Positions 46,765 through 50,663 of a stretch of DNA of 64,000 bases are shown piece by piece. Where the stretch lies: the NCBI GenBank assembly GCA_014802445.1, contig JAAVCF010000022.1, forward strand, positions 1-64,000, written 5' to 3'. A model generated the notes under the pieces. The model worked only from the letters and a program-made list of their open reading frames with translations, had not been told where the DNA came from and made no database searches. Source of the stretch: Bacteroides sp. Lineage in GTDB: Bacteria; Bacteroidota; Bacteroidia; Bacteroidales; Muribaculaceae. The position numbers were made by a program, and so were the translations under genes. Positions within the stretch are counted from its first letter, which is position 1. Every line of letters starts with the position of its first letter.

Positions 46765-46774
46765 ATTGAGCGAG

Positions 46775-46848
46775 TAGCGGGACCGAGAATTGAACTCGGG
46801 ACCTCCGGGTTATGAATCCGACGCTCTAACCAACTGAGCTATCCCGCC
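46775..46848 (-). tRNA. tRNA-Met (CAU)
   Basis: Minus strand ggcgggatagctcagttggttagagcgtcggattcataacccggaggtcccgagttcaattctcggtcccgct. Confidence 0.93.
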
Positions 46849-47023: not shown

Positions 47024-47896
47024 TTAAAAATGCAGGTCTTTACCATATTCAGCCACAGGTTCTTTGACGCAACCTGTTGGTGAAGCAAATGATAGGTCCC
47101 GTAATCTGTTAATATAAGAAGAGCGGATTGCTTTGTTGTTAATTTCTAATCGGCGCGCTTTTGAAAGTGAAGCAAACTCGGATGCCTGTTCAATCCCTAA
47201 AAAACGTCTGTTGCATAAATTTGCTGCGATGCCTGTTGTTGAAGAACCTGCGAAAGGATCAAGAATCCAATCGTGTTCGTCAGTGCTGGCGAGTATAATA
47301 CGGGTCAGGAGTGCCAATGGTTTTTGCGTAGGATGTTTGCCGCATGATTTCTCCCAACGGCCAATTGCCGGAAGACGCCATACATCAGTCATCTGTTTCC
47401 CTTCATTTATAGCCTTCATAAGCTCATAATTATACTTATGAGGTACTTTTGGATGCTTTCGCGCCCACACTATAAACTCTGTTGAGAAGGTAAAGAACCG
47501 ACAAGATATGTTTGGCGGAGGATTAGTTTTCGCCCAAGTGATAACATTTAGGATTTTATAGCCAAGCTCTGTAAGTAAATTGGCTATAGAAAAAATATTA
47601 TGATGCGTACCGGAAATCCAGATTGTGCCATTTTCCTTGAGTTTATCCCGACATAGCGTCAACCATTTACGATTATATTCCATGATTGATTCCGGCGTCC
47701 CACCTTTGTCCCAATCGCCTTTATCTACACAAACTATTTTACCAGCCTGATAACTAATCCCTCCATTGGAAAGAAAATAAGGCGGGTCTGCGAAGATCAT
47801 GTCAAATTTGAAATCAAACTGCGGAAGCACATCAAAGCAGTCGCCATGTACAATGGTGAAAGCCCGGTCGTCTGATTTATAGAATGGAGTTATCAT
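47024..47896 (-). CDS. DpnA-like N6-adenine DNA methyltransferase
   Basis: MIFADPPYFLSNGGISYQAGKIVCVDKGDWDK, ISGTHHNIFSIA, KHPTQKPLALLTRIILAS, LDPFAGSSTTGI. Confidence 0.9.
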   Translation of the reverse strand: MITPFYKSDDRAFTIVHGDCFDVLPQFDFKFDMIFADPPYFLSNGGISYQAGKIVCVDKGDWDKGGTPESIMEYNRKWLTLCRDKLKENGTIWISGTHHNIFSIANLLTELGYKILNVITWAKTNPPPNISCRFFTFSTEFIVWARKHPKVPHKYNYELMKAINEGKQMTDVWRLPAIGRWEKSCGKHPTQKPLALLTRIILASTDEHDWILDPFAGSSTTGIAANLCNRRFLGIEQASEFASLSKARRLEINNKAIRSSYINRLRDLSFASPTGCVKEPVAEYGKDLHF

Positions 47897-48597
47897 CCCT
47901 TAATGGCAGATAAATCCAGATTCGGAATTATTTGTGTATTAGTATAATTTTTCTTGTAGTAGAAAGCTCGTCTTCGCGCACGTGTTTTTCCTCCTTTTCC
48001 GTCAGGTGCATCCGTTGTGTCTTGGTTGTTAGCACCTTTGGTCTTTGGCTCGAGATATGTCCCCATGCTACATGAAAGTTTATCTGCATCGCCGCGGATA
48101 ATATAGGATTGGATCTCTTCCCAATCTGTCCGAAACACGCCATTTTGTACGTCGGATGGATGATCAAGAAAATAATCAACAATTACATAATCATCTTGCT
48201 GTTTGCGTACACCATTCTCCTTAGCAAGATAAACAACCCAAAAAGTTAAATTAATCTTACTTCGTATTTTGGCCGTTTCCCAAGTCTCTTTGGCAACTTC
48301 ACAATAGTTAATCATCTGAATGGCTGTCGGTTCTTTTGCCTTAATAGACCCATTTTTATTCTTCTGCAAAGGCAATATCTTAATCTCACAGCCAATCTGG
48401 GGTATATCAGCTTCATCCCTATTGTTATTTTCTAAGCCGAGTAAATTCTCGACAATTAATCCTGCTGCACCCTTCTTCATTTTACACTTATCACCAATAA
48501 ACAGAGATTCTTTTAGCTGTCCTATTGTTTTCCCCTTTGCATTGGTAACTATATCAAAAAGAGGAGTAAGAATCTCTATAACTTTACTACTGATCAT
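47893..48597 (-). CDS. MutH/Sau3AI-like restriction endonuclease
   Basis: KGAAGLIVENLLGLENNNRDEADIPQIGCEIKILPLQ (MutH-family pattern with ExK); 234 aa. Confidence 0.8.
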   Translation of the reverse strand: MISSKVIEILTPLFDIVTNAKGKTIGQLKESLFIGDKCKMKKGAAGLIVENLLGLENNNRDEADIPQIGCEIKILPLQKNKNGSIKAKEPTAIQMINYCEVAKETWETAKIRSKINLTFWVVYLAKENGVRKQQDDYVIVDYFLDHPSDVQNGVFRTDWEEIQSYIIRGDADKLSCSMGTYLEPKTKGANNQDTTDAPDGKGGKTRARRRAFYYKKNYTNTQIIPNLDLSAIKG

Positions 48598-49418
48598 ATT
48601 TTTACCTTGGATATAAATTCGTTGATATTTGTAAGGTTGTACACACTCGGAATATGAGCAAAAGCTTCTTCAAGTTTATTGCGGGCTGATTCCCAACCGA
48701 TGCCGTCAGTTATCCAAACGAACTCGAAACCGGGAACCGCATTGATTTTCGGTGCAAGTTCCGAATATGACCTGGCAACTTCGTTGAGCTTTGAACCTCC
48801 TCCGGTATAGAAGTTGGCCTCAATCAGATAGGTCAGATCTTTATGTTTGACAACGAAATCAAATCGCTTATTGTCCGCTCCCAATGCCTTGACGATCTCA
48901 GGAAATTCTGTATAATAAACTTCTTGTTCATAGGCGATGCCATGATTGTCGAAGATGTTAGCCACAAGTTCCTCCATGATATGGCCTCCTCTGTTTTTAC
49001 GCGCATTGGAATCCAAACCAACTTCAACTCCGAACACATAGTCCACAAGGTTCTTAATCTGTTTTTTCTGGAAAACTTCTGTAAGTCCAGTGTCGTTCAG
49101 AAACTTCGTTACCTGTGCAGACGATGTGAAGTAGTCGGCGACAAGGAGAATATTTCCATTCTCATCAATGGCTTTCTTTTTGTCTTTTGTGCGCACAGCA
49201 ATGAGAATGTCCAAAACCGAGAATACTCTCGGATTCTCCTCCCATAGGCGCTCTACGGCTTTGGCCATATCCTCTTGTCCTATCAGATAGTTAAGCTGAT
49301 TAAGCTTAATGGATATTGCTTCTACATTCGCCGCAACCTTCGGGAAATCCACATAGTCCTTCAGTGAGAAGTGAGTTTCCTTCAGTGGCTTCATAAAGTC
49401 ATTAAAACGGTCTGCCAT
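48594..49418 (-). CDS. DpnII-like type II restriction endonuclease (GATC specificity inferred)
   Basis: DYVDFPKVAANVEAISIKLNQLNYLIGQEDM..., GLDSNARKNRGGHIMEELVANIF, RFDFVVKHKDLTYLIEANFYTGGGSKLNE. Confidence 0.88.
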   Translation of the reverse strand: MADRFNDFMKPLKETHFSLKDYVDFPKVAANVEAISIKLNQLNYLIGQEDMAKAVERLWEENPRVFSVLDILIAVRTKDKKKAIDENGNILLVADYFTSSAQVTKFLNDTGLTEVFQKKQIKNLVDYVFGVEVGLDSNARKNRGGHIMEELVANIFDNHGIAYEQEVYYTEFPEIVKALGADNKRFDFVVKHKDLTYLIEANFYTGGGSKLNEVARSYSELAPKINAVPGFEFVWITDGIGWESARNKLEEAFAHIPSVYNLTNINEFISKVKI

Positions 49419-49421
49419 ATC

Positions 49422-50369
49422 TTATAAGTCAAAAAGGGTTGATGAAGGACCTTGGAAGTTGTCGTAGTTTCGAATCAATAATTCGGTAAGGCTCCCTCGC
49501 TTGGATGCATTGGCGTTAATGTTTCTTTTTGCGTACACTCGTTCAATGTAAAAATCCTTATAAAGGATGTCAAAGAAATCATCTTTGGAGTTGCGTCCTT
49601 TGCAGTCGGAATTGCTTAGCATGCCTTGATAACCTTGAGAGGATATAGACGAATAAAAGTCCTTTAATCGAATTTGTTCTTTATCGTCAAATCCCTCCTT
49701 TACATAGGAATTGAAACTTGATGTTGCGTCAAGTGGTCTGTAGGGAGGATCGAAATAGAAAAATGTGTACCCCTCAACAAACTCACCAGTTTGAGAAAAA
49801 TCACCATTCAGGATCTCTACTTTCTGCAAAAGTTCGCTATCTGCGATTAATAGGGCTTTATCGCAGATGGTGGGATTAGAGTATCTACCGAAAGGTACAT
49901 TGAAAAAGCCTTTGGAGTTTTCGCGATATAAGCCGTTAAAACAAGTGCGGTTTAAGAAAATCATGAAGGCTGCTTCTTCAATGTCTGTCAGGGATTCTTG
50001 GTTAAATCGAGAACGAATATTTAGAAAAAGCTCTTTTTGCTTCTCAGAATCGTTAGCTGTTCTGAATTTTTCTTGTAATTCTGACAATGCGTTTATCAGA
50101 GCATATGGATTATCCCTGATGATGGTGTATGTCCTAATTAAATGGGGGTTTATGTCGTTTATGATTGCCTTCTTAATGTTGGGATATTTCTGTAGTATAA
50201 AGAAGAGCATTGCACCTCCTCCGACAAAAGGCTCTATGTAGGTTATATCCTTTTCCCTTTCAAAAGATTCCGGAAGAAAGGAATCTAAAGTTGGCAGCAA
50301 TTGGGTTTTGCCACCAGCCCATTTAAGGAAAGGCTTTGCCTTCGTTCTGGAAATAGTCTGTAAAGTCAT
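49422..50369 (-). CDS. Dam/DpnM-like N6-adenine methyltransferase
   Basis: KPFLKWAGGKTQLLPTL, EPFVGGGAMLFFIL, FFYFDPPYRPLDATSSFNSYV. Confidence 0.93.
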   Translation of the reverse strand: MTLQTISRTKAKPFLKWAGGKTQLLPTLDSFLPESFEREKDITYIEPFVGGGAMLFFILQKYPNIKKAIINDINPHLIRTYTIIRDNPYALINALSELQEKFRTANDSEKQKELFLNIRSRFNQESLTDIEEAAFMIFLNRTCFNGLYRENSKGFFNVPFGRYSNPTICDKALLIADSELLQKVEILNGDFSQTGEFVEGYTFFYFDPPYRPLDATSSFNSYVKEGFDDKEQIRLKDFYSSISSQGYQGMLSNSDCKGRNSKDDFFDILYKDFYIERVYAKRNINANASKRGSLTELLIRNYDNFQGPSSTLFDL

Positions 50370-50521
50370 TGTTTACAAGCTAATAGCACCTCAACTACAA
50401 GATAGCAATCTAAGGTGTGGTCTACCTGTAACGACTATTTCGGAGTTGACATTAGGGCATTCCTGCCATTTTTAGGATAAATAGATGACCATCGTTTAAG
50501 ATTATTATCGCTATGATCTTG

Positions 50522-50617: not shown

Positions 50618-50663
50618 GAGGGGGAGAAAAAGTATCTGCAACCGGGGTGGGTTGCAGATACTT
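50618..50663 (-). terminator. Terminator for the 50676-53600 gene
   Basis: Perfect 14-bp stem aagtatctgcaacc/ggttgcagatactt followed by TTTTTCTCC on the minus strand. Confidence 0.85.

What the first reader, a model, noticed from the sequence alone, without database searches (positions are those of the whole stretch)
47024..50369. Four-gene GATC restriction-modification operon with two different GATC-type nucleases
Seen: four minus-strand ORFs nearly or actually overlapping (3-nt gap, then two 4-nt ATGA overlaps), noticeably more AT-rich than the flanks. Established: Dam/DpnM, DpnII and DpnA are the classic three-gene DpnII system, while MutH/Sau3AI is an unrelated GATC nuclease family. Inference: the operon order dpnM-dpnII-mutH/sau3AI-dpnA gives one cassette two nucleases expected to read the same site. 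The MutH-like protein is the size of single-domain MutH, about half of Sau3AI, so it could be a nickase, a second restriction enzyme with different methylation sensitivity, or a co-opted mismatch-repair-type nuclease.
Basis: partly seen in the sequence, partly recalled or inferred. Interest (0 to 1): 0.75.

Follow-up and report, generated by a model that had tools for sequence, protein, structure and literature searches.

The report
GATC restriction operon, two unrelated nucleases
A gut-type Bacteroidales bacterium carries a mobile DNA-defence operon in which two methylases appear to guard GATC sites while two unrelated cutting enzymes, a DpnII type and a small MutH/Sau3AI type, are both expected to attack unguarded GATC; related bacteria keep one, the other, or both.

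Summary
In detail: four minus-strand ORFs, one 3-nt gap and two 4-nt ATGA overlaps, about 40% GC against 57-60% around them. They are a Dam/DpnM methylase, DpnII, a single-domain MutH/Sau3AI nuclease with intact D64-E71-K73 and K114, and a DpnA-like methylase. The MutH-type protein is best read as a second restriction enzyme, not a repair protein. In 19 of 28 relatives with visible upstream DNA it sits between the same two methylases without an intact DpnII. Hosts of those MutH-only operons avoid GATC (O/E 0.21) as strongly as DpnII hosts (0.31); Bacteroidales genomes without either scored 0.69. The methylase pair is a recurring frame whose contents change: DpnII only, MutH only, both, or extra genes. 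The DpnII tree needs several separate pairings with MutH, so the nuclease seems to move as a module. It is rare (5 of 150 genomes of the family). No paper describing the pair was found in the library searched. Cutting of GATC, one strand or two, and response to methylation are inferred, not shown; residue evidence on methylation is mixed (Tyr at MutH Y212, Ala at F94). New variant of a known kind.

The parts
49422..50369 (-). M1: Dam/DpnM-type adenine methyltransferase, 315 aa
   Evidence: Pfam PF02086 E 6.4e-61; NCBIfam dam TIGR00571 271.6 bits, over its cut-off; closest PDB is DpnM 2dpm, E 1.8e-59; the only D12 MTase found in the genome
48594..49418 (-). R1: DpnII restriction endonuclease, 274 aa
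   Evidence: Pfam PF04556 E 2.4e-101, full length; PADLOC REase_II E 3.6e-90; dN/dS about 0.04 in its lineage (two unsaturated pairs)
47893..48597 (-). R2: single-domain MutH/Sau3AI-type nuclease, 234 aa
   Evidence: Pfam MutH E 8e-21; phmmer to Sau3AI 4pxg E 1.2e-21 and MutH 2azo E 6e-19; model matches 2aor E 6e-12 and 4pxg E 5e-11; D64, E71, K73, K114 intact; dN/dS 0.042
47024..47896 (-). M2: DpnA-like (N6_N4) adenine methyltransferase, 290 aa
   Evidence: Pfam PF01555 E 6.1e-56; 55% identical to the second MTase of Lactococcus plasmid pSRQ700
50522..50552 (-). promoter-like site of Bacteroidales type, TTG-N20-TATCTTTG
   Evidence: sequence match only
50630..50663 (-). terminator-like perfect inverted repeat between the upstream 974-aa gene and the operon
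   Evidence: 14-nt arms, 100% complementary, followed by T-rich DNA

Best explanation
A horizontally acquired Type II restriction-modification operon for GATC. The Dam/DpnM and DpnA-like enzymes methylate the adenine of GATC and protect the host. DpnII and the single-domain MutH-type nuclease are two independent restriction enzymes under the same protection, each cutting incoming DNA that lacks the mark; the MutH type probably cuts one strand at a time, so that two nicks give a break. The MutH type is a movable restriction module that works alone in sister operons and has been paired with DpnII several times. Shown: gene identities, intact catalytic residues, purifying selection, MutH-only sister operons, repeated pairing, GATC avoidance in hosts. 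Inferred: GATC methylation and cleavage, one-strand-at-a-time action, sensitivity to Gm6ATC, and the benefit of having two.
For: Families and fold. Catalytic D/E/K/K plus the MutH positions K48, E91 (E89 here), K186 and Y212 kept. 19 of 28 relatives have MutH after DpnM with no intact DpnII; 15 of these have an undamaged MutH frame. GATC O/E: MutH-only hosts pooled 0.21, DpnII-only 0.31, both 0.32, neither 0.69; MutH-only versus neither p = 2e-5 by Mann-Whitney, while six control palindromes showed no matching drop in MutH-only hosts; a simpler background model agrees. Window outside the operon: 30 GATC against 218 expected. Two-domain Sau3AI relatives in the same class mostly sit next to a C5 methylase where the neighbour could be read, so the adenine-methylase partners are particular to this clade. 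DpnM tree: presence of MutH changes 10 times; L121 (DpnII only) and L015 (MutH only) have nearly the same DpnM. dN/dS of MutH is 0.042 where DpnII is also present.
Against: No biochemistry. R184 of MutH is Lys here and F94 is Ala; the F94A form of E. coli MutH is reported to nick all methylation states (PMC10940147), which would make methyl protection incomplete. E. coli MutH alone is slow and is stimulated by MutL (PMC3848065), and Sau3AI has a second domain that is absent here. Genomes lacking both systems were not screened for other GATC systems; the MutH-only samples are 6 kb of flank each and not phylogenetically independent.
Confidence: 0.75

Rival explanations
1. The MutH-type protein is a strand-specific nickase that acts at hemimethylated or unmethylated GATC and assists DpnII, rather than being a full restriction enzyme.
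For: Size and architecture of single-domain MutH, a nicking enzyme (PMC3848065); Tyr at the methyl-sensing position 212 in all 24 aligned members while Sau3AI relatives have Ser or Ala.
Against: It is the only nuclease found in 15 operons with an intact frame, and MutH-only hosts avoid GATC as strongly as DpnII hosts; an assistant without a partner would not be expected there. MutH can also cut both strands of unmethylated sites (PMC3848065).
Confidence: 0.17
2. A co-opted mismatch-repair nuclease that gives the host methyl-directed repair.
For: MutH homology, Dam-type methylase in the same operon, MutS and MutL genes elsewhere in the genome.
Against: Found in only 5 of 150 genomes of the family, so repair there does not depend on it; not beside mutS or mutL in the window; placed between two restriction-type methylases; moves between operons; below NCBI's MutH equivalog cut-off (109.5 against 243 bits).
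Confidence: 0.03
3. One nuclease is a passenger being lost; only one is working.
For: Natural losses occur: DpnII reduced to 33 residues in L005; MutH stops at the catalytic codons in L018 and L007.
Against: In the window both frames are intact, and in its lineage both show dN/dS about 0.04, so both have been kept by selection.
Confidence: 0.1
4. The MutH-type enzyme reads a different or relaxed site (for example GAT plus any base) while the methylases still protect it.
For: F94 is replaced by Ala; the E91A/F94A double mutant of E. coli MutH nicks GATN (PMC10940147).
Against: E91 is invariant here (E89); GATC avoidance in MutH-only hosts.
Confidence: 0.08

Closest known systems
DpnII system of Streptococcus pneumoniae and the DpnII-type system of Lactococcus plasmid pSRQ700 (LlaDCHI, name from memory)
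   Same: Dam-type M1, DpnA-type M2 and DpnII nuclease for GATC; M2 55% and DpnII 38% identical to those of pSRQ700
   Different: pSRQ700 order is M1-M2-R; here M1-R-R2-M2 with a second, unrelated nuclease
Sau3AI Type II system
   Same: Same nuclease superfamily and catalytic residues; best NCBIfam score is the Sau3AI model
   Different: 234 aa single domain instead of about 490 aa with two; partners are two adenine methylases instead of a C5 methylase; Tyr instead of Ser at position 212
MutH of methyl-directed mismatch repair
   Same: Size, fold, D/E/K/K residues, Tyr212
   Different: Lies in a mobile restriction operon, no link to mutS/mutL, below the MutH equivalog cut-off, F94 and R184 not kept
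MboI-type GATC system of Prevotella intermedia (Pin25611FII, PMC5608340)
   Same: Bacteroidales GATC Type II system; in strain 17F the nuclease gene next to the same methylase is lost and other DNA stands in its place, similar to the swaps seen here
   Different: One methylase and one nuclease; the word MutH does not occur in that paper

Membership tests
DpnII (M1, M2, R) Type II system | Dam-type M1, DpnA-type M2 and DpnII-family nuclease together | tested here: met
DpnII (M1, M2, R) Type II system | Gene order M1-M2-R with a single nuclease | tested here: not met
   M1-R-R2-M2 in the window against pSRQ700
DpnII (M1, M2, R) Type II system | Methylation and cleavage of GATC | not testable with these tools
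   Indirect only: GATC depletion in the genome
Sau3AI family | Catalytic D-E-x-K in a MutH fold | tested here: met
Sau3AI family | Second, C-terminal MutH-like domain; about 490 aa | tested here: not met
   234 aa; all 24 aligned relatives have about the same length
Sau3AI family | C5-cytosine methylase partner | tested here: not met
   Two adenine methylases; C5 neighbours seen beside Sau3AI-type relatives
MutH (mismatch repair) | Single MutH domain with catalytic residues | tested here: met
MutH (mismatch repair) | Score over NCBI's MutH equivalog cut-off | tested here: not met
   109.5 against 243 bits; TIGR02248 88.5 against 229.9
MutH (mismatch repair) | Activation by MutL | not testable with these tools
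   Host has MutL; interaction not tested

The most novel reading that the evidence does not exclude
The two nucleases divide the work: DpnII cuts fully unmethylated GATC, while the MutH type also nicks half-methylated GATC, giving a second layer against phages or plasmids that carry some GATC methylation of their own; the host tolerates this because GATC is nearly purged from its genome.
Probability: 0.17. Interest if true: 0.7.

Novelty: new variant of a known kind. Interest (0 to 1): 0.47.

Why it matters
It gives a natural test of why a cell keeps two unrelated nucleases for what is expected to be one site, and shows a single-domain MutH relative working, by context, as a restriction enzyme without MutL or a Sau3AI second domain. 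Natural operons with DpnII only, MutH only and both allow a direct comparison. It also bears on how a repair nicking enzyme and a restriction enzyme turn into one another.

Tried and rejected
Methylation control of the promoter by a GATC at the presumed start (50515-50518): only 2 of 54 related operons have a GATC near such an element. Phage carriage: no relative of the MutH protein in viral contigs; the two weak hits in phage records (31-32%) carry no annotation and were not pursued. Structure of the accessory 443-aa protein: model too poor to search (pLDDT 40); no hit in Pfam, PADLOC, PHROGs or PDB sequences. Clean empty site in a same-genus genome: the DNA next to the topoisomerase gene differs there and no tRNA was found, so no junction could be read. 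The host MutL metal motif reads DQHRAHKRVLYE, degenerate against DQHA-x2-E-x4-E, so no conclusion on the host's repair type was drawn. Literature searches gave no description of a DpnII plus MutH operon; only open-licence papers were searched.

Full report
What is there. The four ORFs are at the stated coordinates, minus strand, tightly packed and AT-rich. Pfam, NCBIfam and PADLOC name them Dam/DpnM, DpnII, MutH/Sau3AI and an N6_N4 adenine methylase. The MutH-type protein matches Sau3AI (E 1.2e-21) and E. coli MutH (E 6e-19) by sequence, and its model, of moderate confidence (pLDDT 69), matches MutH-DNA 2aor and Sau3AI 4pxg. It scores below NCBI's cut-offs for both equivalogs: a relative of both, a member of neither as curated.

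Residues. Against E. coli MutH, D70, E77, K79, K116, K48, E56 and Y212 are kept in the window protein and in all its 23 aligned relatives; E91 corresponds to E89, which is invariant. F94 is Ala (Gln in three relatives) and R184 is Lys. All readable Sau3AI relatives have Ser, one Ala, at Y212. Tyr212 is reported as important for reading the methylation state (PMC3848065), which would fit an enzyme restrained by adenine methylases; but F94A MutH is reported to nick all methylation states (PMC10940147). The residue evidence on methyl sensitivity is therefore mixed, and since the clade is one lineage the match of Tyr with adenine-methylase partners counts as about one event. Two Sau3AI rows (L031, L040) were misaligned because of their start choice and are not counted.

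Relatives. A genome scan gave 29 loci, mostly 70-92% identical. Nine have DpnM-DpnII-MutH-DpnA (one, L002, with a 442-aa gene inserted between DpnII and MutH); 19 have DpnM and MutH without an intact DpnII; in one (L030) upstream DNA is missing. Most are Bacteroidota; three come from records labelled Akkermansia, others from records labelled Lachnoclostridium and Gastranaerophilales (metagenome bins, so labels may be wrong). DpnII operons of Bacteroidales and their class, fetched separately, have no MutH but often other genes before DpnA. The two methylases thus frame a slot with changing contents.

History. The MutH tree needs at least two origins of the two-nuclease state; L022 stands apart with MutH-only relatives. 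The DpnII tree shows three separate settings: window/L003/L004/L006/L010, L002/L008/L011/L012, and L022, with DpnII-only operons between them (quick tree). In the window's lineage the synonymous difference is 0.58 for MutH but about 0.8 for the other three genes, and window against L002 keeps 72-81% DNA identity over MutH while DpnII falls to 60-68% or is unalignable. So MutH was exchanged on its own, or its synonymous sites are more constrained. The window's flanking genes occur at none of the other loci: the operon has no fixed place.

Target site. The window outside the operon has 30 GATC against 218 expected, ratio 0.14; the operon itself 0.53; three other 20-kb pieces of the genome 0.20; two same-family genomes without the system 0.86 and 0.93, but one without it 0.36. 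Pooled: MutH-only hosts 0.21, DpnII-only 0.31, both 0.32, neither 0.69; MutH-only against neither p = 2e-5. Other palindromes show no such step for MutH-only hosts (GTAC and GGCC are low in the both-nuclease hosts). Avoidance of orthodox Type II sites is known (PMC4687349). The higher ratio inside the operon suggests that avoidance in this genome is older than this copy of the operon. This is the best available evidence that the MutH-only operons act on GATC, but it is indirect.

Selection. MutH and DpnII in the window's lineage both have dN/dS near 0.04 (DpnII from two unsaturated pairs only). Both are maintained.

Rejected and open. A repair role is unlikely: the gene is in 5 of 150 genomes of the family, whereas MutS and MutL are present in this genome elsewhere. 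A nicking helper is less likely than a restriction enzyme because the protein often stands alone. What remains unknown is cutting itself, one strand or two, and why both nucleases are kept.

Novelty. Each part is known. The pairing of DpnII with a single-domain MutH-type nuclease, and the MutH-only operons with two adenine methylases, were not found in the literature searched. I rate it a new variant of a known kind.

Noticed in passing
L016:6713-8044, L002:4639-5967, L013, L014, L030: A 442-443-aa protein found five times in MutH operons, either between DpnII and MutH or between MutH and DpnA; cysteine-rich C-terminal part, ends in EGGGGLMA; no hit in Pfam, PADLOC, PHROGs or PDB sequences.
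   Followed up: partly
L018:5614-6306 and L007:197-895: Stop codons in MutH fall exactly on the two catalytic codons (E71 in L018, K73 in L007); frameshifts near residues 79 and 97 in L028 and L029. May be chance, assembly error or selection against the nuclease.
   Followed up: partly
L118, L122, L124, L131 (DGQHR-like by eye), L109 (AIPR-like by eye), L135 (OLD-like by eye), L013 (GmrSD by Pfam), L026 (NOV_C by Pfam), L108, L110, L123, L125-L127, L096 (about 175-185 aa): The slot between DpnII or MutH and DpnA holds many other putative defence genes in Bacteroidales.
   Followed up: partly
L005:724-863: DpnII reduced to its first 33 residues by an internal deletion with MutH kept intact.
   Followed up: yes
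window 46774-46848: tRNA-Met directly downstream of the operon, a possible insertion landmark; no repeat marking an integration end was found.
   Followed up: partly
window 1-64000: CTAG is almost absent (2 copies, ratio 0.03) and GTAC is depleted (0.48), besides GATC.
   Followed up: no
L022, L023, L027: Near relatives of these operons in records labelled Akkermansia suggest transfer between phyla, if the bins are right.
   Followed up: no
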